From contig OZ026844.1 in NCBI GenBank assembly GCA_964023205.1, positions 10,526,790 to 10,590,789 of the forward strand: DNA of 64,000 bases, given 5' to 3'. Position 1 is the stretch's first letter, and each line of letters opens with the position of its first letter. The notes beneath the pieces are model-generated. The model worked only from the letters and a program-made list of their open reading frames with translations, searched no databases and was not told where the DNA came from. A program made the translations under genes and the position numbers. Origin of the DNA: Lutraria lutraria. Lineage: Eukaryota; Mollusca; Bivalvia; Venerida; Mactridae. This document shows, piece after piece, positions 3,783 through 33,519 of this stretch.

Positions 3783-3786
3783 TCTC
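3783..3786. repeat. Target-site duplication of LTR element (TCTC, left)
   Basis: TCTC directly precedes the 5' LTR, and the same four bases directly follow the 3' LTR at 12318-12321. A 4-6 bp duplication is normal for Ty3/gypsy integrases. Confidence 0.8.
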
Positions 3787-4014
3787 TGTGGTGATTGGGC
3801 CGTATCTGTCTGAGTCCGAATCGGGAGGAACCGGAAGTTAGCGCTTAGCGCTGGGTATTCTGGGAATCGACGCTATCAAAAGAAGACGTATCACAAACGA
3901 CAACACACTAGTAGCTAATCTGCGAATATCTGGTGGTTTAGAAGACATCCATCCATTACAACCTTAGGTGAGTTAATTGTATTGCTTGTTATTGTAAAAC
4001 GGTGAATTACAACA
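3787..4014 (+). repeat. 5' LTR
   Basis: 228 bp, starting TGTGGTG and ending ACAACA. It matches 12090-12317 at 226 of 228 positions. It contains the motif CCTTAG/GTGAGT near 3963-3973, a strong splice-donor match. No clear TATA box was seen; the transcription start is not assigned. Confidence 0.95.
3962..3973 (+). promoter_or_regulatory. Strong splice-donor-like site inside the LTR
   Basis: CTTAG/GTGAGTT, with GT at 3968-3969, is a near-consensus 5' splice site. If transcription starts upstream in the LTR, this donor sits in the leader of every transcript. It could be joined to the acceptor-like site at 10113-10114 to make a subgenomic mRNA for the third ORF. The same site recurs in the 3' LTR at 12265-12276. 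Confidence 0.5.
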
Positions 4015-4015
4015 T

Positions 4016-4026
4016 TGGTGGCAGCG
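4016..4026 (+). other. Primer-binding site, tRNA-Leu type
   Basis: TGGTGGCAGCG begins two bases after the LTR. Its complement is CGCTGCCACCA, the acceptor end plus CCA of an animal tRNA-Leu (AAG-type) as I know it. Eleven consecutive bases match; the match stops after that. Confidence 0.7.
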
Positions 4027-4257
4027 TATATTCGTCCCTACGCTGTGTTGGAGATATCGCTACCAAAGACTGAAGAATTGTCACGAGTGAGAAGATTGGG
4101 TAAAGTGCGTTCCTGCGCAGTGAGTGCTTATTTTTTATTGATAAATAAGTTATAGATTGTTGATATCAATCGAATATTAGCTTATTTAGTGTAATTAATT
4201 TGTGTTTATTTTGTGATTTAGCGTATTTGATTAGTTTGTTTTCGGCGGTAAGGATAA

Positions 4258-5433
4258 ATGGCATCGGGAGGTGATTATAAGATGGAACCAAGGGAAAGGG
4301 AATCTTTGGAGTCTGAGTGTGGCCCGATTGCCATAAACTTTGCCGGGGAAAGGGACCTAATCAAAATTCCTGGAATCAAGGGTACACTGGCTAAGATTAT
4401 ATGTAGTGTGAGGGAGAATTCGGGGAATATAACCCCGGAAATCTTGGAGGCTCTGTCTAGAAAGAAGTTGTCTAAAAAGGCAACGGCAATGATAGCCTTT
4501 TCAAGGAATAAATCCCTTATGGTCCTTAGCCAGTCGGATGATTCCTCCGAGTCAGACTCGTCTCAGTCCGAGTCGGATGAGGAGGAGGTGGTAAAAAAGG
4601 GGCAGAAATCGTTGGAAGGCTGGCCTGAGGTACTTAAGGTTATCCAGGCGGCTACAAAAGTCCTGAATCCAAAGACGGACAGTTGTGGCCCGAAGGATAG
4701 GAAACCAAGGGCCAGTCAGCCAGATAAATTGATATCCCCGGCTGATTTTGGGGCTACTGGGTCAGTTGCCAAGCCCAGTGAACATGCCGTCACCCCAAGA
4801 CGTAAACTTGGCTTTAGCGGGGATGCCATACCTAAGACACCCTCGCTGAGTGAACTGTCTTACTACAACAATATGAGGCAAAAAGACATGGTGAAGTCCT
4901 TGCCAAAAATATTGTTGTATGATGGCAAAAGTAGCTGGGAGGCCTTCCGTATTAAGTTTAATAGGTTTGCGGATGCCTCGGATTGGACAGAAAAGGAATG
5001 TTTAAACGGGATATGCTGGTGTCTGACAGACAAGGCAGCTGAATACTATGCCTTGTTGAGTGAGAGCGAAGAGTCTATTTCATATAGTAGTCTTTTTAGT
5101 AAGTTGGAGGCTAGGTTTGGTGAGCAAGAGTTGCCAGAGGCTGCACAGGTTAAGTTTCAACAAGCCGTGCAGCAATCTGAGGAGAGTATGGAGGACTGGG
5201 CTGATAAAGTCCTCACCCTTGGTACAAGGGCCTTTAGGAAATTGCCTGAGAAGTTTATTAACTCTCAGGTAATTAGTAGATTTTGCCAGGGTTTACTGAA
5301 CCGTGAGGCGGGGCACCATGTGTGTATGCAGGAACCGCATACCATACAGGATGCTATCCAAATGGTCAGAAAATACCAGCAAGTCCATTCAGCAATGTAT
5401 GGCAAGACAAAAAAAGGGAAAGGTCGAGAGTGA
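4258..5433 (+). CDS. gag: Gag polyprotein, capsid part
   Basis: 391 residues from the ATG at 4258, preceded by a 243-bp leader after the LTR. The N-terminal third has an IPGIKGTLAKII stretch and an acidic Ser/Asp/Glu patch (residues ~95-112). Residues ~210-385 match the retrotransposon gag capsid region: a W-x-x-F segment (SSWEAFRIKFNRFA), a 'LEARFGE' helix, and a QS-x-E-S-x-x-x-W motif (QQSEESMEDWADKV), all classic for Ty3/gypsy Gag. The frame ends just after an A7 run (KKGKGRE). The coding signal then resumes in the +1 frame, so the stop at 5433 reflects a frame change, not the natural end. Function: particle formation around element RNA. Confidence 0.9.
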   Translation: MASGGDYKMEPRERESLESECGPIAINFAGERDLIKIPGIKGTLAKIICSVRENSGNITPEILEALSRKKLSKKATAMIAFSRNKSLMVLSQSDDSSESDSSQSESDEEEVVKKGQKSLEGWPEVLKVIQAATKVLNPKTDSCGPKDRKPRASQPDKLISPADFGATGSVAKPSEHAVTPRRKLGFSGDAIPKTPSLSELSYYNNMRQKDMVKSLPKILLYDGKSSWEAFRIKFNRFADASDWTEKECLNGICWCLTDKAAEYYALLSESEESISYSSLFSKLEARFGEQELPEAAQVKFQQAVQQSEESMEDWADKVLTLGTRAFRKLPEKFINSQVISRFCQGLLNREAGHHVCMQEPHTIQDAIQMVRKYQQVHSAMYGKTKKGKGRE

Positions 5434-5692
5434 GAGAGTTTTTGCTGTGCAAACCGCCCCTAAGAGTGAGCCCGAGGGAGTTGATTTTGTCCAAGCCTTA
5501 AGGGAGTTAGAGGAAAGGCTGGTGAAGGTTATAACAGAAAACCAGAATCAGACCCGCCCTGCCCCTAGACGTCCCTAGAAGTGTTTTGGATGTGGCCAAT
5601 TAGGACATATGAGGAGAGAGTGCCCCCAACAGCAGGGTTTAAACGACAATGGGGCGGAGACTCAGGCCTACCCCCGCCCCCGACAAACATAA
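5434..5692 (+). pseudogene. Gag C-terminus with nucleocapsid zinc knuckle, frame-shifted and interrupted
   Basis: Coding continues in a different frame from the capsid part. A charged linker is followed by a TAG at 5576-5578 and then directly by one CCHC zinc knuckle (C-x2-C-x4-H-x4-C, CFGCGQLGHMRREC) and a short Pro/Arg tail ending at TAA 5690-5692. The knuckle binds element RNA. Whether the frame change at the A-rich run near 5409-5416 is programmed or a mutation cannot be told from one copy. The TAG is a break in this copy. Confidence 0.8.
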
Positions 5693-6230
5693 GCAATTCC
5701 AGAATGGCCGCTAAATTTCCTACAATTGATAACCCAAGCCCAGGTGAGGGAAATAAATTGTTGGAAAAGGTTAACCCTCAGGTGGACAAAACAAAGGTAG
5801 TTGAGTCGACCAATGTACCATGTGAGGATCCAGTTGTGGTTTGTCAGGTAGAGTCCATTTCTCAATTCTCAATTGGGATAACGGTAGGGGATAGGCTGGT
5901 AAATGCTATTGTGGACACTGCAGCCCAAGTGACCTTAATCTCAGATAGGGTCTATAATGCATTAATATGTAAACCCCCCATTGTTCGAAGGGTCCAGCTA
6001 AGGGCGGTAGGAAGGGAAATGGCCATGCAGGGTTTTGTTGCGGGACCTATTAAAGCTGAAGATAGGTGGTCGCTGGTATGAGGAAAATGTGCATGTGGCT
6101 CCCATAGAACAAGACATGCTCTTGGGGTTTGATATTCTTAGAAACCGAGGCCAATCAGTTCTAGACATGGGGAGGGGAGTACTATGGTTTGATGGAATGG
6201 AAATCACTTTAAACACTGGGTTGTGTCAAG
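5693..6230 (+). pseudogene. Aspartic protease, split over two frames
   Basis: A retropepsin-like domain. The first half (5861-6050) holds the catalytic motif IVDTAAQVTLI, where the usual DTGA/DTGS is DTAA. The second half, in another frame from about 6050, has the conserved DMLLGFDIL segment. The frame changes near 6040-6070, and again before the RT part near 6230. Role: maturation of the Gag and Pol polyproteins. As written, the domain cannot be made in one piece. Confidence 0.8.
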
Positions 6231-7890
6231 GGACCCCCCTGGTTGCAAGGGTGACAGTGACCAAAAAACGTGTTATACCCCCCAGTCTGTGGCCAAGGTA
6301 GAATGTGGTATCAGTGAAAACCTCCCGGATTATGTTGTAGAGCCTGTAGGTAATGTAAATCTGTTGGTGCCAAGGGTGGTAAGACAGGGTGGGAGCAAAC
6401 CAATAGTGTGTGTGTTAAACCCGAGTGATCGATACAGAGTTGTGAGCAAGGGAATGGAAGATTCGGTACTGATTCAAGAAGTCAGAGAGCCCACCACGGA
6501 GGCCTCTGATAAGAACCAGACTGGATTAGGCATTCCAGAACATTTGCAGGAATTGTATGCAAATGCAATGGAGAACCTGAGTGAAGACGAAGGGATTCAG
6601 TTAGCTCAGTTGCTAATTGAGATTCAGGATGTCTTTGCAAGGGATGACTTTGACTTGGGTAGCTTCACTGCGATGGAGCATAAGATTGAGACGGGTAGGG
6701 CCCACCCAGTAAAGCAAAGAATGAGACGTACTCCCGCTTGCTTTGCTGGGGAGGAAGAAGCCCATCTCAAGAAAATGCTTCAGGCAGGGGTCATACAAGA
6801 GTCTACGTCAGACTGGGCGTCAGCCCCAGTTTTGGTTAAGAAAAGGGACGGGAGTGTGAGGTGGTGTGTAGATTATAGGGCCCTCAATGAGGTAACTGTT
6901 AAAGATCTATACCCACTTCTCCTCATAGATGACTGTCTAGACATAGTGTCAGGCAGTGTGTTATTCTCTAAATTAGATGCCAACTCAGCATATTGGCAAC
7001 TAAAGATAAAAGAAGAGGACAGAAAGAAAACAGCCTTTACTACAAAGTATGGGCTGTACGAACATGTCCGAATGGGGTTCGGATTAACCGGAGCCCCCGC
7101 AACGTATGCCAGAGCTATGAACCTGATTTTAAGGGGGCTGACATGGAAAACCGTGTTAGCCTTCTTGGACGATGTTATCGTGCTTGGCTCCTGTTTTTCA
7201 GATCATCTGATAAACTTGAGAGAGGCATTACAACGATTTAGTCAGTATGGCATGAAACTGAAACCTAGGAAGTGCTCCCTGTTCCAACAGGAAGTAGAAT
7301 TCCTGGGTAGACGGGTTGGTCATAATGAACTTGCAGTAACTGAAGATGACATTAAAGTAGTACGTGATTGGCCGGTTCCTACCAGTGCCAAGCATGTAGA
7401 AAGGTTCATGGGGTTGGTAAACTATCATAGAGGGTTCATAAAGGACTTCTCTAAGATAGCAACTCCAATGTATGCAGTTACAGGCAAAAATAACTTTGTC
7501 TGGACTGATAAACAAGAGAATGCTTTTAAGTTGTTGAAGAAAGCATTATCTGAACCCCCTGTGTTGGCGTTACCAAACCTGCATGACGACTTTGTGTTAG
7601 ACACAGATGCTTCGGACAATGCCATAGGTGCGGTCTTATCGCAAATCCAGGAGGGACAGGAACGGGTGATAGCTTATGGAAGCTATGCGCTGACTAAAGA
7701 GCAGCGTAGGTATTGTGTGACTCGTAAGGAGTTATTGGCGGTAGTGCGTTTTACGAGACAGTATAGGCACTACCTCCTGGGGAAACCATTTGTTGTGCGA
7801 ACCGACCACTCTAGTTTGAGGTGGTTGATGAGGGTTTCGGCAGCCGCAAGGCCAGTTGGCGAGATGGCTAGAGGAGCTGTCTCAGTATAG
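6223..7890 (+). CDS. pol: Reverse transcriptase and RNase H (Pol, central part)
   Basis: 555 open codons; the first ~30 are probably out of frame with real Pol. RT runs from about residue 150 to 400: the KKRDGSVRWCVDYRALN block, FSKLDANSAYWQLKI, then FGLTGAPATYARAMN, the catalytic box FLDDVIV (residues ~314-320, a common gypsy variant of YxDD), and FLGRRVG. RNase H follows (DTDASDNAIGAVLSQ, then TRKELLAVV and RTDHSSLRWL). The frame breaks near 7850 within RNase H and continues in the next frame. This block copies element RNA into DNA and degrades the template. It is the best-preserved part of Pol. Confidence 0.95.
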   Translation: MSRDPPGCKGDSDQKTCYTPQSVAKVECGISENLPDYVVEPVGNVNLLVPRVVRQGGSKPIVCVLNPSDRYRVVSKGMEDSVLIQEVREPTTEASDKNQTGLGIPEHLQELYANAMENLSEDEGIQLAQLLIEIQDVFARDDFDLGSFTAMEHKIETGRAHPVKQRMRRTPACFAGEEEAHLKKMLQAGVIQESTSDWASAPVLVKKRDGSVRWCVDYRALNEVTVKDLYPLLLIDDCLDIVSGSVLFSKLDANSAYWQLKIKEEDRKKTAFTTKYGLYEHVRMGFGLTGAPATYARAMNLILRGLTWKTVLAFLDDVIVLGSCFSDHLINLREALQRFSQYGMKLKPRKCSLFQQEVEFLGRRVGHNELAVTEDDIKVVRDWPVPTSAKHVERFMGLVNYHRGFIKDFSKIATPMYAVTGKNNFVWTDKQENAFKLLKKALSEPPVLALPNLHDDFVLDTDASDNAIGAVLSQIQEGQERVIAYGSYALTKEQRRYCVTRKELLAVVRFTRQYRHYLLGKPFVVRTDHSSLRWLMRVSAAARPVGEMARGAVSV

Positions 7891-8690
7891 CATGATGGTA
7901 CGTTACCGTGCTGGTCGGGACCATGGAAACGCGGATGCATTGTCTAGATTACCTTATAAGGACAGTGCACCGAGTTCCATTCTGAGATACGATCGGATAA
8001 ACTGCCTTGTGGTGGATGCCAATACTGTTGGAAGGCCCAGGAAAACTGGGGTCCCTTCCTGGAGACAGTGGATGATGCAGTGATGGAAGTCACCAGATTG
8101 GAAACGACTATTCCGTTGGCCACGGATGGGGTGGCGGATCTGGTAGACAGGGGAGTACACTGGGGACCATCCAAGAAACCCGAAGTTCTTGTAGGGGAGA
8201 ATTTGGTTACAACAATGTGCAGCCAAGCACAGGAATGGGGGGTCCAACCCTTGGGTAACGGGGAAGCCTGGGGTCCGGTGGACATGGCAGATGTGGCTGC
8301 ATTTGATCAGGTGATCATGGGTATACACTGGGACCAGTCAATCACCTTAACTGGCGATACTGTGAGTGTAAATGTGGTCACACGGGGAATTGCCAAGGCA
8401 AAGGTGCTTGGGATGCCACTTGAGGTCACAAATACAGATGAGCAGGATGGGGGAAAAGGGGGGAACCTAGTCAAATAGTTGACCCATCTATACCCCCTGA
8501 AACTAGTTTTAGGGATCCTAAGACCAACTCATGTTTGGATTTTCCTAAATCAAGCTCGAGTTGGGGCTTTTCGAATGCAGATTTGAAGCATTCGCAGGGC
8601 CAGGACGAGGATCTGAGTACTGGAGTATTTGGCCAAGGGAAATGAACCTGAAACTTCAATACTGTTCAGAGCCAGCCCCGCATCAAAATA
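7856..8690 (+). pseudogene. RNase H end and linker to integrase, several frame changes
   Basis: The first frame (to 8083) begins ARWLEELSQY and contains GRDHGNADALSRLP, the hallmark end of the gypsy RNase H/connection region. Coding character then moves to another frame at about 8040 (VDDAVMEVTRLETT...). It changes again near 8460 and near 8640. The middle is poorly conserved linker, so exact switch points are uncertain. Confidence 0.7.
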
Positions 8691-10088
8691 TTACTGGTTG
8701 AATAGAAAACAACTGGTTTTTATCGATGAGGTGTTGTACATGGAAGATGGTAACACGGGGGATACCGTACTGGTTCTACCCCGTGAATTACAGGAATAGG
8801 GTATAACTTGGAACCATGACCTCCCGTCCTCGGGCCACCAGGGGGTGCAGAGAACGAAGGAGAGAATGAAGGAAAAGTTTGCCTGGTTCGGTATGGCCAG
8901 AGATATTAAGGGTTACGTGAATGGGTGTGAATCATGTAACCAGAACAAGAAATCCACTAAGCAGGGTAGGTGTCCTATGATAGAATGTCAGGCAGGGGCA
9001 CCTATGGAAAGGGTGCATATTGATTTCTTAGGGCCGTTACCAAAGACTGCCCGGGGAAATGAGTATGTACGCATGATAGTGGATCAGTTCACTAAATGGG
9101 TAGAGTGTATTCCACTGCCGACTCAGACGGCAGAGGCTACAGCAAAGGCTGCAGTCGACCAATTCTTTGCGAGATTTGGGACCCCATTCCAAATCTTCTC
9201 AGATCAGGGTCGTAACTTTTAGTCAAAACTGTTTGCTGAATTATGCAAGGTAATGCAGATTCATAAAACACGTACGACGCCATACAGACCATCAGCCAAT
9301 GGGCAGGTGGAGAGATATAATAGCAGTCTTATGAATGCTATTAGGTGTTTCATTGGAAAATCCCAGAACCAATGAGACCTCTATTTGCAACAAATAGCGG
9401 GAGCTCTCCGATCTTCGGTAAACCGAATGACTGGCTTCACTGCCAATATGATGATGCTGGGGAGAGAGGTAAATACCCCTGCGGATATAATGTTTCCACA
9501 TTATAAGGGAGTAGTTATGGATCAGCCTTCATATGTGCAGGAGCTTGCCGCCAACTTGCAGAAAGCCCATGAGGTAGCCCGGTCTGTCATGAAAACCACT
9601 TCAAAGCGGATGAAAAGAAATTATGATCTCCGCCCCATAGAGAGAAAATATGAGGTGGGAGATGTAATTTATATCTTAGATTATGCAGCTTTGAAAGGTA
9701 AATACAAAAAGCTCTGCCCCCCCCCCCCCCCTGGAAGGGCCCAGCCGTTATAGTTTCCAAACTATCGGATGTGCTTTTCAGGGTGAAACTAAGAAATGCG
9801 GTCATGATGGTAAACCATGATCGCATCAAGAAGTGTAGAGACCGTGAAACCCCACAGTGGATAAAGCACTGGTTAAAACAACCAGATGATGCTGTGGTCA
9901 CAGCTCATGGGGATGACCGGGTGTACTGTTCCTGCAGGCAACCCTGGCAGGGCCGGTTTATGATTCAGTGTAACTACTGTGGGGAATGGTACCATGGGTC
10001 CTGTGTAAATATCACACCGTCCGACGCCGTTGATATTGACCTCTACAGGTGTGCTGACTGTAAAATCAGGAAGCAAGCCGTTGACTAA
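8691..10088 (+). pseudogene. Integrase with H2C2 zinc domain, DDE core, GPY-like module and C-terminal PHD finger
   Basis: Order: a YYWLNRKQLVF lead-in; HHCC zinc domain (HD...GHQG...CESC, ~8812-8940); DDE core with HIDFLGPLP (first Asp), SDQGRNF (second Asp) and PYRPSANGQVERYN (Glu). A basic C-terminal module has DVIYILD and a W-K-G-P-A segment. Then comes a PHD-type finger at 9927-10061 with C-x-C, C-x2-C, H-x2-C and C-x2-C pairs (YCSC, QCNYC, WYHGSC, YRCADC) and the aromatic WYHG step. Breaks in this copy: TAG 8797-8799, TAG 9220-9222, TGA 9373-9375, and a frame change across a run of 15 C at 9717-9731. The end is TAA 10086-10088. PHD fingers commonly read histone H3 tails, so a role in target choice is a reasonable inference. 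Confidence 0.9.
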
Positions 10089-10097
10089 TTCTGTTGT

Positions 10098-10119
10098 GTG
10101 GTTGTACATTTCAGATATG
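10098..10119 (+). promoter_or_regulatory. Splice-acceptor-like site before the third ORF
   Basis: A T/G-rich tract ends in 'tacatttcag', with AG at 10113-10114. The first in-frame ATG of the third ORF starts at 10117, two bases into the presumed exon. With the donor in the LTR this arrangement resembles env expression in gypsy/errantiviruses. It is a sequence match only. Confidence 0.45.
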
Positions 10120-10938
10120 GCAAGTAGTACTATGACTGACGGGTTGGAAAGGGCGAACAATCTCTCAGCCAAAGAGAAGTTGCTAGCCCCTAAGGAACTT
10201 GCCCGGAAGGTGACGGCCTGCAATGACAAACAACGGGGTGAAGATGCCCTGTTGAGACAGGTTGAGGTCGCCAAGAGGACCAATAGGAAGTTGTGGTTGT
10301 CCGCTCTGACCCGGGAGTTGGATGTGTTACAGTACCAGAGAAGGGAATGGTTGGCCCTTTAGCTCCTGCTAGGGTCAAGACTGTCAGTGAGGATGCTCCC
10401 CATGGAATCAGTAGGGACATCCGCATCTGGAACGACCCTTCCCTGGAGAGAGTAGTGGTAGACCTGGGTGGTTTATCCAGCAGCAAGTCGGAGGATATGG
10501 AAGTGGAACCAATTCCTTCGGATCAGGAAGACAAGTTGCTGGAGTCACCGGAGAAGCCGACGAAGCCAATCAGTCCTGTGAGGCCGAGGAGGCGTTCCCC
10601 GTCTGCTGACCTGATGAAAGTTCCCCCCGTACTTGGCAGTCAGTCACGTGAGCGGACTGTTAGTAGCCAGGCTGTTTCTAGGAGTAGATCCAGGGACAGT
10701 CTGAGCAATGAATCACACAAAAGGGTCAGAAGAGGGGATATCCGGGTTACTACTCCGGGCATCCCTAGGTGATTTGATAAGGTACCTGGAATGTGCGGGG
10801 TGTTTGGAGTTAGAGGCAGAGATAGAACCAGAGCTGGTGACAGCGATGGGGGAACTCTGTCAATATCTTCAAATGGAACCCCCGAAGGATTGGAAATTGG
10901 AAACCAAGGGGAACGCAGTCACCGCACTCTTACACTGA
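10117..10938 (+). pseudogene. Third ORF, N-terminal half: charged helical and Ser/Arg/Pro-rich region
   Basis: It starts at ATG 10117, 28 bp after the Pol stop. Residues 1-80 are charged and helical in character (SAKEKLLAPKELARK, LLRQVEVAKRTNRK). The frame then shifts near 10340-10360 into a Pro/Ser/Arg-rich linker (PVRPRRRSPSADL, SRSRSRDSLSNES) that could hold a nuclear-localisation signal. It returns to the first frame near 10710-10770 for a short helical segment (LECAGCLELEAEIEPELV). A TGA at 10936-10938 interrupts it. I see no envelope features: no signal peptide, no cysteine-rich ectodomain, no transmembrane segment. No known domain was recognised in this half. Confidence 0.6.
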
Positions 10939-11895
10939 CGAGTGCTGATGTTGCTGGTGTCTCTGTTGGAACCTCACCAAGTAGAAACTATCAGAGACCA
11001 ATTCCCACTGGAGCCAGAAGAAATGGATATGCTACCGACACTTCCCTGTGGTTTTGACAGTCACTGCCATTTGGATAGAACAATGAGGGATGTAGGGCTA
11101 TGTACTAGCCACCCTCAATTGGACACCATTTTGGCAGCCGTGGACCCCTAGGAGGCGTACGAGGTAAAGGTAAACCGAGTCGTCGGGGTGTTTTGCGATC
11201 CAGAAACTTACCCAAGTCTGGATAGACTGAAATCCTGGGTGGAACAGGGAGTGGTACATACGGTAGGTATCCATCCCAAACGGTCACTAACGGAAGAAGG
11301 TTTTCAGAAATTAAGGAACCTTCTGGAAGAACCGGAGGTGGCCGGACTGGGTGAAGTGGGACTGGACCGAACCGAACCACAAGAGACATGGGTGGGGCAG
11401 ATGTTGAAACTGCAGAAAGTTCTATGTCTGTTGAAGCCAGAACACGTCTTGGTCCTCCATGCTAGAAGCACTCAGCCAGTGTCTGACGAGGCCCTGCTCA
11501 CACTGATGTTCATTCTGAAGTCGCATACCAATGTAAGGCGTGAACAGTTGATCCACGTGCACTGTTTCACAGCCACCACCTTGTTAATAGGCCAATGGTT
11601 GGAGAATTTCCCCAACTCGTACTTCGGTTTGACATCAGTGGTGAAGAAATTTGACAGGAAGTCCGGTCAAGTGGAGGCGATACGGAGTATAGATCAGAGT
11701 AGGCTTCTTCTGGAGACTGACTCACCGTATTTCCCTCCCTCGGGCTATAGAAGATCAATCCCAGCTCTTCTTGGAATGACCGCTGCTACGGTAGGCGAAG
11801 TGCTAGGCATCCCATGGAAGGAGATATTGGAAGTGACTGAACATAATGCTGAGCGGTTGTATGTACAGAAGCAACCGCCCAGGGGACAGTTGTGA
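10939..11895 (+). pseudogene. Third ORF, C-terminal half: TatD/TATDN2-like metal-dependent DNase
   Basis: Same frame throughout, one TAG at 11149-11151, natural end TGA 11893-11895. The TatD signatures appear in the family order. These are SHCHLD (His-x-His, 11062-11070), GIHPK, GLGEVGLD (Glu 11353), VLHAR (His 11458), HVHCF (His 11560) and ETDSPYF (Asp 11719). So every expected metal ligand is present. A C-terminal helix follows (TEHNAERLYVQK). The wording HCFTATT and LLLETDSPYF is closer to eukaryotic TATDN2-type proteins than to the bacterial TatD I know. Known family activity: Mg-dependent nuclease on DNA or RNA-DNA substrates. Why a retrotransposon would carry it is unknown; processing of cDNA ends, flaps or R-loops is speculation. 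Confidence 0.9.
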
Positions 11896-12089
11896 ACCAA
11901 TTGGAGCTGGGGAGGGGGGTAAGGGCTGTTATGTTTTTTTTGGAAAGCAGGATCCTTCCTGCTGGGTGGGTCACTGCATCACGCATGTGACCAGTTAGTG
12001 TCGTGTTTTAGGGTGCCCTGTTGTAAGAACACTCGGATTCAGAGAAACACAGTTCGTGGACCAAGTGCTTTGGATAGAACAGGGAGGTG
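11896..12089 (+). other. 3' untranslated region of the LTR element
   Basis: Non-coding tail between the third ORF and the 3' LTR. It has a G-rich purine tract (ggagctggggagggggg, ~11903-11919) and a shorter purine run (cagggaggtg) directly against the LTR, the better-placed candidate polypurine primer for plus-strand synthesis. Confidence 0.6.
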
Positions 12090-12317
12090 TGTGGTGATTG
12101 GGCCGTATCCGTCTGAGTCCGAATCGGGAGGAACCGGAAGTTAGCGCTTAGCGCAGGGTATTCTGGGAATCGACGCTATCAAAAGAAGACGTATCACAAA
12201 CGACAACACACTAGTAGCTAATCTGCGAATATCTGGTGGTTTAGAAGACATCCATCCATTACAACCTTAGGTGAGTTAATTGTATTGCTTGTTATTGTAA
12301 AACGGTGAATTACAACA
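12090..12317 (+). repeat. 3' LTR
   Basis: 228 bp, differing from the 5' LTR at positions 12110 (C for T) and 12155 (A for T). It is followed directly by the TCTC duplication at 12318-12321. Confidence 0.95.
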
Positions 12318-14580
12318 TCTCCTCCATGGCGTCCTCCTCCGAAAGAGAGAGCTTTCCATCAATTCCCGGCGATTCCGAGTCGGTCCGTATCCTATATAAC
12401 AAACATAAAAGCCAAAAGCATGTGTTGTTACTTCTTAAACTTTTGCCAAAATTACCTTTCAGACTGTCAATCCATAATCACTACACATTTATTTTCCACC
12501 TTCAGTACGCTGACTTTAAAAATCAATACAGCTGTACACATGTCTGTCGGTGTTTCTTTTTGAAGTCAGCTGTCTCCACATATCATTGTCCTGTGCATAT
12601 TTCGGTGTCATAAAACTTGCTGAGACAGGATGGTGTGTAATTTACCGCTTATCTGATTGTTAATTGAAGTTTCACGTGAAATTGGAGTAATAGTAGCAAA
12701 TTGGGACCTTGCATGGTTATTGTTTTAGGTACGTGACGTAGATTAAATAAACAAGTAGTGTCATGCAGTTGTCTATAATTTGAAATCTGATATTTTACAG
12801 TATCAGTAAAACGATTTAAGAATTACATATAAAACTCATACTTAGTTTTATTTTGATCTCATGAAATGTTTCTGTTTTACAGTTTATTATTAATTGTCTA
12901 ATATGAAATATCACTAACAATCGTATTTTCATCTTTTTTTATTATACAGACAAAATAATTGCACCATGATTATTTGTTCAAACATCATAATATATATTGC
13001 GTTCCTGCACATTTTAACAATCAATAATTATAACGTCGGTATGACATAAAAAAGTTGACAATTTTCGAAATTAACTGAAGTTTGTCACACCACCAATGAC
13101 ATCTTTTTTGTATAAATTCAAAACGAATAGCAATGTTCAATTGTTTGTACCGAACGGCTAGTAACCATTAATTTGGATAAGTGTTAAAAAATATTGTCAT
13201 TTATAATACAATATCATTTAAGGCCGTATCTTTACCATAGGCAAGTATTTGCCGATCTGTAAATAAAGTATATATATATAATAGTGCTCGCAGAACGGGT
13301 GTACTGGCTTTTACACTTTGTGAAATATGACGTCACGACATGCGACTATTCTTTCAAAATGGCGGCGCCCTAGGAGATTCGTATAATCACTAAATGACAA
13401 TATTAAATCACCCATATTTTTGTTAAATGGTGGATTTTTAAAAAAAAAATGCAGGAATCATCATAACTTTAATAGTTCTACACGACTAAGTGCTTGAAAA
13501 GTCAACATTGCGTTGCAAATATAAGAATTACATACTAGTGTATGTAACATGATTTGAGTGCAATCAAGACATGTACAAAAATTGTATTCGGTACCCATTA
13601 AAGTATACAGTGCGTGGTTCATTGATTGCTTGCAGCTGAAACACGCGGTCGAAGTAATTGGCCGAAAATTAGAGGATTATTCAAGTAGAAAAGGTTCATT
13701 TAAGATAATGCATCTTCACACTTTTATTTTTAACATTTGATTCCATACATATAAGGGTTTATTTCAGATTCATAAGGCTCTCAGGCACATGTGACCTATA
13801 TACAAATATATAGACGTAGCAAGTTGACAAAAGAGATGGTATAAATTTACATTAAGATTGGTTACCACTTATATAGTACGAGAAAGTGGGAATTTGTTTA
13901 TAGTTCATTCATTAATGCATATTTAACAAATAAGAGGGAAAAAATAATCTGAAAGCTGTAGCTTACAAAATTATTTAGACAGTACAACAGTTATAATAAA
14001 AAGAAAGAGAGAATAATAAGTAGGAATGTGATCGAAGATGGGTTTAAAATATTTGTGTTCGTAACATCGCTGTTGTAGTGGGAAAGGGACATTACTCCCG
14101 CATTGGTTGGTAGGAAATCGTAAAAAAGGTAAATAAAAAAAAAGGTTTACAATTATATTATATATGTTCAAGACTATTAATATTATAATTACCTCTTACA
14201 AATAGGTATTTGGTTGTAAAAAATTCTCAAACGTAGCGTACGGTTGTTGCAGACGAAATCAAGACGCACTTGGCAAATTAGATATTCAAGCGTAAAGATT
14301 GGCATATGTAGCTAAAATATGATAAAATATGTTAAAGTAAATGCCCGAACGCCCCTTTTGTCGTGACGTCGGTCATATATATTGATAAAAAAGTTTAGGA
14401 AATTTTTCGTCACAACATAATTTCTGTGTAGATAAATGATGTAAACATGTTTGTGTGGTAAAAGGTTGTGCCTGGCCCTATAGAACAAAATTATTTCCAT
14501 TTCCCGCGTGATTTCATCGAAAATCACATCGAAATGATGTGCAATCCATGCAGAGCTAAATTTGTAGACTATCCAGTGTC
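12318..14580. other. Non-coding flank of the LTR element
   Basis: The first ~80 bases after the LTR are richer in G+C and CpG than the surroundings and stay open on the minus strand from an ATG at 12357-12359. This may be a first exon split by the insertion, but it is not proven. At 13328-13335 there is a perfect CRE palindrome (TGACGTCA) and at 13356-13366 a YY1-like AAAATGGCGGC. The rest is A+T-rich with no supported gene; open frames at 13558 and 13971 lack motifs. Confidence 0.45.
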
Positions 14581-14636
14581 ACATTACACATTTTCTTTCT
14601 AAGCGTAAGCTGAAACAAATAAATCCGAAAATAACG

Positions 14637-15210
14637 ATGGGACGTCGTCCTGGAATGACGTTGAGGTTGAATAAACTCAGAGCTATTGGAATGCTAATGG
14701 CTGGTATGTATGCTAGAGACGTCGCTCGGCATTTCGATGTTCATGAGTCGACCATCAGTCGCCTAAAGACCAAATTGCAGCAAACAGGCAACGTGACTGA
14801 TCGACCCCGTACTGGACGGTCCCGAAAAACAACACCAAGGGAGGACCGTTATGATATGACTGTCAGAAACAGGCTGCGAGCAGCTGGATTAAGAGGACGT
14901 CGCCCTTACGTCGGTATCCCTCTGACAGACATCGTCAGGCGTGTGTCCATTGGGTTCAGATTCATCGCAGGTGGTCACGCAGACAATGGAATGACGTTCT
15001 ATTTAGTGATGAGTCACGATTTAACCTGTCATTTGCACTGATGGTAGGATTCGTGTTTGGAGGAGATGTAATGAGAGGTTTGATCCTAAAAACGTCATAA
15101 ATCATGATCGTTACGGTGGTGGTAGCGTAATGGTATGGGCGGGAATTTACCATGATGGTAAGACAAAGCTTGTGACGGTTTTCGGGAATCTGACAGCACA
15201 GCCAACTCTA
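14637..15210 (+). pseudogene. Tc1-like transposase, truncated and frame-shifted
   Basis: It begins with MGRRPGMTLRL, then a Tc1-type helix-turn-helix (ARDVARHFDVHESTISRLK) and the GRPR-like hinge (DRPRTGRSRKTTPRED). After a deletion the second helix-turn-helix (TVRNRLRAAGLRGRRP) is present. The frame then shifts near 14930, after which the catalytic-core start is seen: HWVQIHRRWSRRQWNDVLFSDESRF, with the first catalytic Asp in FSDESRF. A further shift is followed by a segment typical of YGGGSVMVWAGI. The sequence stops before the later catalytic residues. No inverted terminal repeats were found. A dead remnant of a cut-and-paste transposon. Confidence 0.85.
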
Positions 15211-29851: not shown

Positions 29852-32800
29852 ATGACAAATAGCTTTTTATTGCAGTGGAACTGTAGAGGCCTTAAACCAA
29901 ATCTAAATGAATTAAATCTTATTTTAGAAGAGTATAACCCTAATATTATATGTTTACAAGAAACTCTACTAAAACCATCTGATAAATTAGATTTAAAAAA
30001 TTTTACTTCTTATCATCACATACATAACAATCCACTAAAAAACTTCTATAATGATAAATTCTAAGATCCCTCAAAATTCCATTCACCTAAATACAAATCT
30101 ACAAGCAATTGCTGTAAAAGTTTCTTTAAATAAATCAATTACTATATGTTCAATTTATATACCTCCTCATTATAAATTAACTCAAAATGAACTAGAAAAT
30201 GTTCTATCCCAACTCCCACAACCCTACATAATTGTAGGAGATTTTAATGGCCATAATGAATTGTGGGGCAACTCACACTCAAATGATAAAGGTAAAATAA
30301 TTGAAAAGTTTTTATCTGAAAATGACTTATGTCTTTTAAATAATGATTCTCCAACTTATTTACATCCAGCATATGGCACTTATACAACCATTGACTTATC
30401 TATAGTTCATCCATCTCTATATTTAGATTATGAACTATCAATAAATGAAGATTCTCATGGTAGTGACCACTTTCCCATTATAATCAAAGAAGTTGAAAAA
30501 AGAAATAGCCAAAATTCTCTAAAATGGAATTTCAAGAAAGCAAATTGGGAAAAATTTAATATTCTATGTAATAAACAATTAACATATAACAGATTTAAAG
30601 ATAATGAAGACCCAATTTTATCTTTCACAGAAATTTTAATAAACATATCTCATGAATGTATCCCCAAAACAAGCCCTCAGGCAAAAAAGCGAAATCCCTG
30701 GTACAATGATGAATGTAAAGAAGCTGTAAAAAAGAGACAAAAACAGTTTAAAATGTTTTAATAAATACCCAACTGTAGATAATCTAAATACATGCAAGAT
30801 AATGAGAGCCAAAGCCAGAAGAACAATTAAAAAAGCAAAACAAACATCATGGCAAAATTACGTATCAAAAATAAACAATAGAACCCCTATGAAAAAAGTA
30901 TGGGAAATGATAAGAAAAATCAGTGGAAAATCTAAACAAACAAAATACTCTCATATAAAAGTAAATGATAAATCATTTGAAACTAAAGAACAAATAGCTA
31001 ACATCTTAGGAGAAACTTTTAAGAAAAACTCATCTTCATCTAATTATACTGATAATTTCAATAACATAAGAAATAAAAAAGAAAAAGAAAATATAAACTT
31101 TGACTCAAATAACGATGAAACATACAACTTCCCACTAACAATAAATGAACTTGAAACTTCTATAAAAGATGCAAATGATTCAGCTGCTGGACCAGATCAA
31201 GTACATTATCAACTCCTTAAACACTTACCAATACAATCTCTAGAAACTTTATTGAAAATATTTAATATAATATGGGAAAAAAATATTTTCCCAAAAAGCT
31301 GGAGTGAAGCAATGATTATTCCAATACCTAAACCAAACAAAGACCCCACAAATCCTACAAATTATTGACCAATAGCATTAACTAGCTGTATTTGTAAAAC
31401 CTTTGAAAGAATTATAAATAAAAGACTAGTCTGGTTTTTAGAAAAAAATCACTTAATTTCAAAATACCAAACAGGTTTCCAAAAAAATAGAAGTACTACT
31501 GACCAATTAGTAAGGTTAGAAACTTTCATTAGAAATGCTTTTATTAAAAAACAACATGTAGTAGCAATTTTCTTTGATCTTGAAAAAGCATATGATACTA
31601 CCTGGAAACATGGAATCATAAAAGACTTACATACTATTGGTCTCAAAGGCAATCTTCCCAAATTTATTTCAAATTTTTTATCAAATAGATCTTTTAAAGT
31701 AAAAATGGATACCACATTATCTGAAACTTATGAACAAGAACAAGGAGTACCACAAGGTAGCATTCTATCTCCAACATTATTTAACATAAAAATAAACAAC
31801 ATTACAAAATGTCTGGAAAATGATATAAACTGTTCTTTATATGTAGATGATTTTCTAATCTGCTATAGATCTAAAGACATGTCTACCATAGAAAACAAAT
31901 TACAGGAAAATCTAAACAGAATTGAAAAATGGTCTTCAGAAAACGGTTTTAAATTCTCAAAAACAAAAACAAACGGCATTCATTTTTGCCAAAATCACAA
32001 ACTTCATCCTGACCCATATTTAAAAATATATGACAGTCAAATTCCAATAATAGAGGAAACCAAATTTTTAGGAGTAATTTTTGACAAAAAACTCACCTTC
32101 ATACCACACATAAAAGCCCTAAGAATAAAATGTCAAAAATCTCTAACCTTATTAAAAGTTTTATCTAACACAAACTGGGGTGGTGATAAAGACACCCTCT
32201 TAACACTATATAGATCATTGATAAGATCAAAATTAGACTATGGCTCTGTCATATATGGATCAACACGTAAAAGTTACTTAAAAACACTAGATTCCATTCA
32301 TCACCAAGGACTAAGATTAGCTTTAGGAGCTTTCAGAACATCCCCTATTGAAAGTTTATATTCTGAAGCTAATGAACCATCTCTGTGCACTAGAAGACTA
32401 AAACTATCTTTACAATATGTAACAAAACTTGCATCTGATACCAACAACCCTGCTTACAATGATATATTTAATCCAATATATAATATATTTTATGATAATA
32501 AGCCAAATGCCATCAGACCACTAGGATTAAGAATAAAACCCTTCCTCCAAGAAGCAAACATCAATATAAATAATATCAAACCTTTCTCATCTCCAAAAAA
32601 AGCACCATGGACCATTAAAGCACCTGAAGTAATACTAGATTTATCTAAAGACAAAAAACAACTTACAAACCCAATATTTTTCAAATCCAAATACTTGGAA
32701 ATCAAAACTAAATATAAAGATCATATATCAGTCTATACAGATGGATCAAAACAAGATGAAAAAGTTGCCTGTGCTGCTATCCAAACATACGAATACACCA

Positions 32801-33519
32801 ACTTAAGATTACCCGACCATAGTTCAATCTTCTCAGCTGAAGCCACAGCAATCTTTATCGCCCTTCAGTCTATACAAGAAACAAACAACAATAAATATAT
32901 TATATTTTCAGATTCTCTTTCAGTACTAAAATCCCTGAAAAATATAAATCACCAAAATCCTTTAATACAACAAATATTTAACAAATATTCAAATCTAAAC
33001 ACAACAAAAAGTATAATTTTCTGCTGGATACCTAGTCATATAAATATTCTAGGAAATGAAATAGCTGATCAAGAAGCAAAAAATGCTTTAAAACTGAATG
33101 TAACAAATATCAAACTTCCTTATACAGACTTTAAATACAAAATTAAAAAATTCATTAACCTAGAATGTCAAACATTCTGGGAAAAATTCACAAATAACAA
33201 ATTATTTCAACTGAAACCTAAATTTAAAGACAACTTCAGCTACCCAATCAATAGAAAAAACCAAGTAATACTTACTAGATGTCGTATTGGTCACTCTCAT
33301 CTTACTCATTCATATATTCTGAAAAACGAAGAAAAACCACAATGTATTTCATGCCACACAGATTTTTCTTTAAAACACATTCTTATAGAATGTCCAGAAT
33401 TTAACATTACACGCTCAAAATACTATAAGGTTGACAATATACATGATCTGTTTTTACATGTATCTCATCAAGATATCTTATTGTTTTTAAAAGAAATTAA
33501 AATTTTTAACAAATTATAA
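29852..33519 (+). pseudogene. LINE ORF2: endonuclease, reverse transcriptase, RNase H
   Basis: The likely start is ATG 29852 (MTNSFLLQWNCRGLK), 59 bp after ORF1. The APE endonuclease spans ~29860-30490 (CLQETLL, VGDFNGHNELWG, SDHFPI). A frame change with a small loss lies near 30050, and another near 30750. RT runs ~31150-32050 with SAAGPDQVHYQLLK, IPIPKPNKDP, then a TGA at 31366-31368 before PIALTS, FFDLEKAYDT, GVPQGSILSP, and the catalytic YVDD at 31840-31851. RNase H spans ~32730-33100 (YTDGSK, AEAT, FSDSLSVLKSL, NEIADQEA). Near 33343 a CISC...H...C zinc motif closes the protein. It nicks target DNA and reverse-transcribes in place. Confidence 0.9.

What the first reader, a model, noticed from the sequence alone, without database searches (positions are those of the whole stretch)
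10939..11895. A TatD/TATDN2-like DNase domain carried by an LTR retrotransposon in the env position
Between the pol stop and the 3' LTR the element carries a third ORF. Its C-terminal half has the complete set of TatD metal-ligand motifs in order (His-x-His, Glu in GLGEVGLD, His in VLHAR, His in HVHCF, Asp in ETDSPYF). These catalytic residues have survived in a copy that is otherwise full of breaks, which suggests selection on the domain in the active lineage. I know of no standard Ty3/gypsy accessory gene of this kind. A nuclease of this family could act on cDNA ends, flaps or RNA-DNA hybrids during replication or integration; that role is speculation. It may also explain multi-copy 'TATDN2' annotations in bivalve genomes.
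Basis: partly seen in the sequence, partly recalled or inferred. Interest (0 to 1): 0.92.

Follow-up and report, generated by a model that had tools for sequence, protein, structure and literature searches.

The report
Retrotransposon lineage carrying TatD nuclease gene
Several families of jumping genes in one unnamed animal genome, with relatives in molluscs and echinoderms, carry after their usual replication genes an extra gene for a TatD-type DNA/RNA-cutting enzyme whose active site has been preserved, which suggests that these elements use the enzyme to copy or insert themselves.

Summary
Confirmed and extended. Window 3787-12317 is a Ty3/gypsy-like LTR retrotransposon (LTRs 228 bp, 2 differences; 4-bp TSD). 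Between pol and the 3' LTR lies a third ORF ending in a TatD nuclease domain (PF01026, E 6.9e-34). This copy is decayed: ORF3 starts near 10117 and has a frameshift, stops and a deletion that removed a zinc finger. The genome holds at least four such families (TatD 34-43% identical), each with integrase + PHD finger + ORF3 (RS-rich linker, CCHH finger, helical domain, TatD). One member of each was bounded: LTR pairs 100% identical, ORF3 open, TSDs in three of four. dN/dS in TatD is 0.04-0.22 in five informative pairs, higher in pairs with decayed copies. Metal ligands are kept in 46-47 of 47 relatives. One sea-star gene model joins integrase, PHD and TatD. Host TATDN2 is a separate lineage (AU p 0.0007), so 'TATDN2-like' is wrong. 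Likely role (inferred): a class II (HxH) metal nuclease acting on cDNA ends, abasic sites or RNA-DNA hybrids; activity untested. Closest precedent: DEDDy-exonuclease ORF3 of bdelloid LTR elements. Bonus: family B's pol also holds a Tpt1 RNA phosphotransferase.

The parts
3783..3786 (.). target-site duplication TCTC, left copy
   Evidence: equals 12318-12321
3787..4014 (+). 5' LTR (TGTGGT...TACAACA)
   Evidence: 228 bp, 2 differences from the 3' LTR
4016..4026 (+). primer binding site TGGTGGCAGCG, one base after the LTR
   Evidence: sequence; the same PBS follows the 5' LTR of family A copy L004 and family B copy L011
4258..5433 (+). gag ORF, 391 aa
   Evidence: PNMA 1e-5 (25.5 bits, cut-off 25), Retrotrans_gag 8e-5 (23.2 bits, cut-off 24.1), weak HHH_3 at the N terminus
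6193..7890 (+). pol piece: reverse transcriptase and RNase H
   Evidence: PF00078 2.3e-27, PF17919 5.6e-33, PF17917 4.7e-29
8800..9753 (+). pol pieces: integrase H2C2 and catalytic core (broken)
   Evidence: PF17921 7.8e-16, PF00665 3.4e-10; 65% identity to family B integrase over 8770-9717
9927..10061 (+). PHD finger at the integrase C terminus
   Evidence: PF00628 1.5e-8
10117..11895 (+). ORF3 as a whole (broken in this copy); start set by comparison with open copies and relatives
11047..11892 (+). TatD nuclease domain of ORF3, HxH to C terminus, with one in-frame stop
   Evidence: PF01026 6.9e-34 on 11155-11892; 97% identical to L002-L004
11062..11070 (+). HxH metal-ligand motif (HCH)
   Evidence: sequence; 47 of 47 relatives keep both His
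11353..11355 (+). metal-ligand Glu of GLGEVGLD
   Evidence: sequence; 47 of 47
11458..11460 (+). metal-ligand His of VLHAR
   Evidence: sequence; 46 of 47
11560..11562 (+). metal-ligand His of HVHCF
   Evidence: sequence; 46 of 47
11719..11721 (+). metal-ligand Asp of ETDSP
   Evidence: sequence; 47 of 47
12077..12089 (+). polypurine tract (GAACAGGGAGGTG)
   Evidence: directly before the 3' LTR; families B, C, D have CGGGGGGAG there
12090..12317 (+). 3' LTR
12318..12321 (.). target-site duplication TCTC, right copy

Best explanation
The element belongs to an animal Ty3/gypsy-type lineage whose pol ends in integrase + PHD finger and whose third ORF encodes a class II (HxH) TatD nuclease behind an RS-rich linker, a CCHH zinc finger and a helical domain. 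SHOWN: position, architecture, occurrence in four families, LTR and TSD boundaries, TatD fold of a relative, retained metal ligands, purifying selection. INFERRED: the protein is an active two-metal nuclease made as a separate product. The finger and basic linker bring it to the element's nucleic acid or to chromatin, and it works after reverse transcription: trimming 3' ends (the 1-6 nt between LTR and PBS), opening abasic or damaged sites in cDNA, or removing RNA left in RNA-DNA hybrids, so that integration by the PHD-guided integrase succeeds. The most likely activity is 3'-5' exonuclease plus AP endonuclease, as in TATDN1 and TATDN3.
Against: No expression or enzyme data. The window copy is dead. 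Two of 8 divergent loci had no IN in the fetched piece (L020/L035, L026/L038), and L020 has lost two ligands although its frame is open. dN/dS is 0.55 for L005/L006 and up to 0.73 in family B pairs with L013 and L022; low values show constraint, not which function. For other species only P0284, and the equal contig length of P0122 and P0214 (917645), speak to genomic context. The genome-wide test of how many IN-PHD copies have a TatD downstream did not complete. The bdelloid precedent found no significant departure from neutrality for its ORF3s (PMC5408684, passages).
Confidence: 0.72

Rival explanations
1. ORF3 acts mainly on RNA or R-loops, like host TATDN2: it removes RNA from RNA-DNA hybrids during plus-strand synthesis or shields the element's transcription in germ cells.
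For: Class II HxH is shared by TATDN2 and TATDN3 (PMC10085689, passages); loss of tatdn2 raises R-loops in medaka primordial germ cells, the tissue where an inherited element must act (PMC12709183, passages).
Against: The element TatD is not of the TATDN2 lineage; pol already has RNase H.
Confidence: 0.25
2. ORF3 counters host defence (cutting small RNAs or extrachromosomal DNA) instead of helping cDNA maturation.
For: Accessory ORFs in this position serve such roles in other retroelements (recalled, no call); the N-terminal part and linker evolve faster than TatD (dN/dS 0.30 against 0.15 in A, 0.15 against 0.04 in D).
Against: Deep conservation of the active site suits a constant substrate better than an arms race; no direct evidence.
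Confidence: 0.1
3. The TatD protein is a non-catalytic structural or nucleic-acid-binding part; the fold is kept but not the chemistry.
For: L020 keeps an open 558-aa frame after losing two ligands.
Against: Five active-site columns are 47 of 47 and two are 46 of 47 while mean column identity is 18%.
Confidence: 0.06
4. A host TatD gene happened to be caught in this one element or lies beside it by chance.
For: None found.
Against: Four families, LTR and TSD boundaries, tree.
Confidence: 0.01

Closest known systems
Bdelloid rotifer LTR retrotransposons (Juno, Vesta) with DEDDy-exonuclease or GDSL-esterase ORF3 (PMC5408684, passages)
   Same: Enzymatic, non-envelope ORF3 after pol; a 3'-5' nuclease with its catalytic residues; element ORFs closer to each other than to host enzymes; a Cys-His-Cys zinc motif is noted in some DEDDy ORFs.
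   Different: DEDDy/RNase D fold there, TatD (metal-dependent hydrolase barrel) here; no integrase PHD finger in the passages read; acquired at least twice and family-specific there, shared by four divergent families here; no significant departure from neutrality there, purifying selection here.
Chromoviruses (Ty3/gypsy with chromodomain at the integrase C terminus; definition from PMC12440569, passages)
   Same: Chromatin-reader module fused to the pol C terminus.
   Different: PHD finger nearest to CXXC1, PHF2 and BPTF instead of a chromodomain; extra ORF3.
Host TATDN2 and TATDN3 / bacterial YcfH (group II TatD)
   Same: PF01026 fold and HxH, E, H, H, D ligands.
   Different: Separate clade from TATDN2 (TATDN1 and TATDN3 were not in the tree); finger, helical and RS-linker regions; multicopy, open without introns in the intact loci, inside LTRs.
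Errantivirus-type elements with env as third ORF
   Same: Position of the third ORF.
   Different: ORF3 is an enzyme; Pfam lists no envelope domain.

Membership tests
TatD nuclease family (PF01026) | profile match over the domain | tested here: met
   window E 6.9e-34; open ORF3 of B 1.8e-40, C 7.3e-35, D 2.6e-42, A 3e-37
TatD nuclease family (PF01026) | metal ligands HxH, E, H, H, D | tested here: met
   window sequence; one open member of each family; 46-47 of 47 relatives
TatD nuclease family (PF01026) | TatD barrel fold | tested here: met
TatD nuclease family (PF01026) | metal-dependent nuclease activity | not testable with these tools
   needs protein
TATDN2 orthologue | groups with TATDN2 | tested here: not met
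   tree; AU test p 0.00074 against A + TATDN2 as one clade; separate host TATDN2 exons
TATDN1 or TATDN3 orthologue | groups with TATDN1 or TATDN3 | not tested
   no named TATDN1 or TATDN3 sequence was in the tree; HxH speaks against TATDN1 (class I, PMC10085689, passages)
LTR retrotransposon | LTR pair, PBS, PPT, TSD | tested here: met
   other families (no TSD seen for C)
Ty3/gypsy (Metaviridae) | pol order RT-RNase H-integrase | tested here: met
   window pieces in that order; L040 RNase H-integrase; relative P0217 has RT, RNase H and integrase in one frame
Ty3/gypsy (Metaviridae) | RT phylogenetic placement | not tested
   no RT tree was built
Ty3/gypsy (Metaviridae) | Ty3-type gag | tested here: inconclusive
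   PNMA 25.5 bits just above its cut-off, Retrotrans_gag 23.2 just under
Chromovirus | chromodomain at integrase C terminus | tested here: not met
   PHD finger found there, no chromodomain listed
Bdelloid DEDDy ORF3 elements | DEDDy exonuclease ORF3 | tested here: not met
   TatD is the one family listed for open ORF3 of A-D
Element with env as ORF3 | envelope glycoprotein | tested here: inconclusive
   no envelope Pfam domain; no transmembrane prediction was run

The most novel reading that the evidence does not exclude
An animal-wide lineage of LTR elements replicates with its own TatD nuclease as a regular, near-obligate component: the enzyme finishes or repairs the cDNA ends (or opens abasic sites) before a PHD-guided integrase inserts them into promoter-like, H3K4me3-marked chromatin. 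This would be an LTR-element use of AP-endonuclease chemistry parallel to, and unrelated in fold to, the endonuclease of LINEs.
Probability: 0.3. Interest if true: 0.92.

Novelty: new variant of a known kind. Interest (0 to 1): 0.82.

Why it matters
It adds a metal-dependent nuclease of a DNA-repair family to the parts list of LTR retrotransposons, in a lineage that moved recently (identical LTRs in the one bounded member of each of four families) and whose parts are found in mollusc and echinoderm proteins. Some invertebrate gene models named 'uncharacterized', 'TATDN2' or 'YcfH-like' are probably transposon proteins, so counts of TatD gene expansion in bivalves need checking. It makes a question directly testable: do retroelements need their own repair nuclease to finish or integrate cDNA?

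Tried and rejected
Host-gene capture from TATDN2: rejected by tree and AU test. Lone insertion: rejected by other copies. Viral contigs: four scans found no relative. Genome contigs: two distant bacterial loci, 27 and 29% identity. BFVD: one giant-virus protein under E 0.001. The helical domain's own fold was not searched alone; the fold list is filled by the TatD part. Papers: TATDN2 + retrotransposon, 8 listed; TatD + LTR retrotransposon, 2; TATDN2 + bivalve, 1; TatD + transposable element + integrase, 3; none of the titles or abstract starts shown is about a TatD-carrying element. PHD + integrase searches (5, 14 and 5 listed) showed no title or abstract start about a PHD-tailed integrase. 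Tpt1 or KptA with retrotransposon (20 of 37 listed, 10 of 3,490 listed) showed none about such an element. Subscription papers and Repbase were not searchable, so earlier notice cannot be excluded. In one search the pairs with L024 were out of register and are discarded; several near-identical pairs carry no signal. L023 and L025 match over the whole 3666 bp held, flanks included, and are not independent insertions. In one search two of the 'TatD' comparisons ran over whole ORF3s; one search repeats them on TatD alone.

Full report
What is there. The window is G000:C13:10526790-10590789 of an unnamed 728.5-Mb genome. An LTR retrotransposon lies at 3787-12317: LTRs 3787-4014 and 12090-12317 (228 bp, 2 differences), 4-bp duplication TCTC, primer binding site TGGTGGCAGCG one base after the 5' LTR, purine tract before the 3' LTR. 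Pfam finds gag-like matches (PNMA 1e-5), RT, RNase H, integrase H2C2 and core, and a PHD finger behind the integrase. The third ORF holds TatD (PF01026, E 6.9e-34) and stops at 11895, 194 bp before the 3' LTR. This copy is decayed: ORF3 carries a frameshift, two in-frame stops and a deletion of about 170 bp relative to family mates.

Other copies. TatD was searched in the own genome: 69 matches among 80 scored candidates; 30 of 69 became loci. I sorted the 30 by sequence: the window family A (12 loci: L001-L010, L015, L017, of which L010 and L017 are one place) includes three copies with an open 696-aa frame (L002, L003, L004; 97% identity). Three further families, B (10 loci: L011-L014, L016, L018, L019, L021, L022, L028), C (5: L023-L027, L026 more diverged) and D (2: L029, L030), have TatD ORFs with open frames of 733-764 aa in their intact members (L011, L012, L019, L023, L025, L029, L030); L020 stands apart. 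TatD identity between families is 34-43%. I fetched a 2.2-kb upstream piece for 8 of the 18 divergent loci: 6 of 8 contain integrase and PHD (L033, L034, L036, L037, L040, and a rearranged L039), 2 of 8 none (L035, L038). In family A, PHD lies in the flank of 10 of 12 loci; L009 and L015 show none. Full LTR bounds were sought for one member of each family: A (L004) 228 bp, B (L011) 258 bp, C (L023) 230 bp, D (L030) 227 bp, each pair 100% identical; duplications CTCT, ATCT and TAAC for A, B and D, none seen for C. In each the TatD ORF is the last before the 3' LTR. These are recent insertions with an open ORF3.

Selection. Nei-Gojobori counts: TatD domain A L002/L005 14 synonymous and 7 other changes, dN/dS 0.15; D L029/L030 8 and 1, 0.04; B L012/L014 0.22, L012/L016 0.20; binomial p from 5.8e-3 to 9.5e-6. 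The window against L002 gives 0.18. Higher values occur: A L005/L006 0.55, and B pairs with L013 and L022 mostly 0.26-0.73, as expected where copies have decayed since insertion. Pairs share branches, so these are not independent tests.

Origin. A tree of 101 of 202 usable TatD domains (12 of 214 hits dropped as short) puts families A-D, L020 and relatives from Mercenaria, Pecten, Argopecten, Dreissena, Haliotis and Strongylocentrotus on one side of a branch with 59 rows (SH-aLRT 97; quick search, no bootstrap; 36 of 98 inner branches weak). Host TATDN2 of this genome (exons at C13:17912371-17914418, 47-54% to Danio TATDN2) sits on the other side with Danio TATDN2, near chelicerate proteins. 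Holding family A with TATDN2 costs 191.7 log units, AU p 0.00074. So the enzyme was not captured lately from TATDN2; the deeper source is unresolved, and TATDN1 and TATDN3 were not in the tree. Integrase-region pieces differ less between families (49-71% identity) than TatD.

Other species. A search with ORF3 (93 hits; only the 7997 candidates sharing most words were scored) and one with integrase C terminus + PHD (102 hits) find the parts in named bivalve, gastropod and echinoderm proteins. P0284, Acanthaster planci LOC110990915 (861 aa, partial), has H2C2 36-94, core 111-207, PHD 378-409 and TatD 606-861 in one gene model. P0122 (TatD) and P0214 (IN-PHD) list the same longest contig length, 917645, suggestive only. 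Two 'Thiodiazotropha MAG' proteins in the clade are probably host-clam contamination (inference).

How it may work. Class II TatD enzymes have HxH and bind two metals; TATDN1, TATDN3 and three E. coli TatD paralogs are AP endonucleases, with 3'-5' exonuclease activity mainly on single strands for the human pair (PMC10085689, passages); TATDN2 is described as an RNA nuclease that resolves R-loops, and tatdn2 is needed in medaka germ cells (PMC12709183, passages). The LTR-PBS spacers (1 nt in A and B, 2 in D, 6 in C, taking the PBS to begin at TGG) mean that linear cDNA should carry a few bases beyond the LTR; a 3' exonuclease could trim them, and an AP endonuclease could clean damaged cDNA. This is inference. 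The PHD finger is closest to CXXC1, PHF2 and BPTF, readers of H3K4me3 (recalled), so insertion near active promoters is a prediction.

Known or new. Enzymatic ORF3s exist in bdelloid LTR elements: DEDDy exonuclease and GDSL esterase (PMC5408684, passages). I found no paper that reports TatD in an LTR element (listings only); Repbase was not available. I therefore file it as a new variant of a known kind.

Noticed in passing
L033:1-345 and L048 (G000:C4, family B copy of L011), between RNase H and integrase: Family B pol contains a Tpt1/KptA RNA 2'-phosphotransferase domain (PF01885 1.4e-32), closest among solved structures to tRNA 2'-phosphotransferase 1 (7yw2, 7.8e-26). None of the 102 IN-PHD relatives lists PF01885, though many are fragments and that search did not score this part. 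A second captured RNA-repair enzyme in one retroelement.
   Followed up: partly
L020 (G000:C8:28129736-28130434): Lone ORF of 558 aa with finger, helical domain and TatD, no pol in the 2.2 kb upstream, two metal ligands lost but frame open: possibly a co-opted, non-catalytic derivative, or only an old copy.
   Followed up: partly
L039 with L029 (G000:C1, family D): Copy with gag and a fragment of integrase in one frame (RT not seen in the piece held) but ORF3 open; the pair L029/L030 has dN/dS 0.04 in TatD: perhaps a non-autonomous derivative that keeps the nuclease.
   Followed up: partly
window 4258-4400; L050:1001 onward: Gag N termini in families A and D resemble a helix-hairpin-helix DNA-binding motif (HHH_3, E 0.0019 and below its cut-off in the window; D by eye).
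   Followed up: no
window 30039-33516: LINE-type element: endonuclease (PF14529 9.2e-25), reverse transcriptase (3.5e-36) and RNase H (3.6e-11).
   Followed up: no
window 14568-15041: Tc1/mariner-type transposase fragment (HTH_Tnp_Tc3_2, 2.8e-5, below its cut-off; HTH_23 1.8e-6).
   Followed up: no
P0175: A protein with TatD and a Ulp1-type protease domain (PF02902) outside the element clade; may mark another mobile element type with TatD.
   Followed up: no
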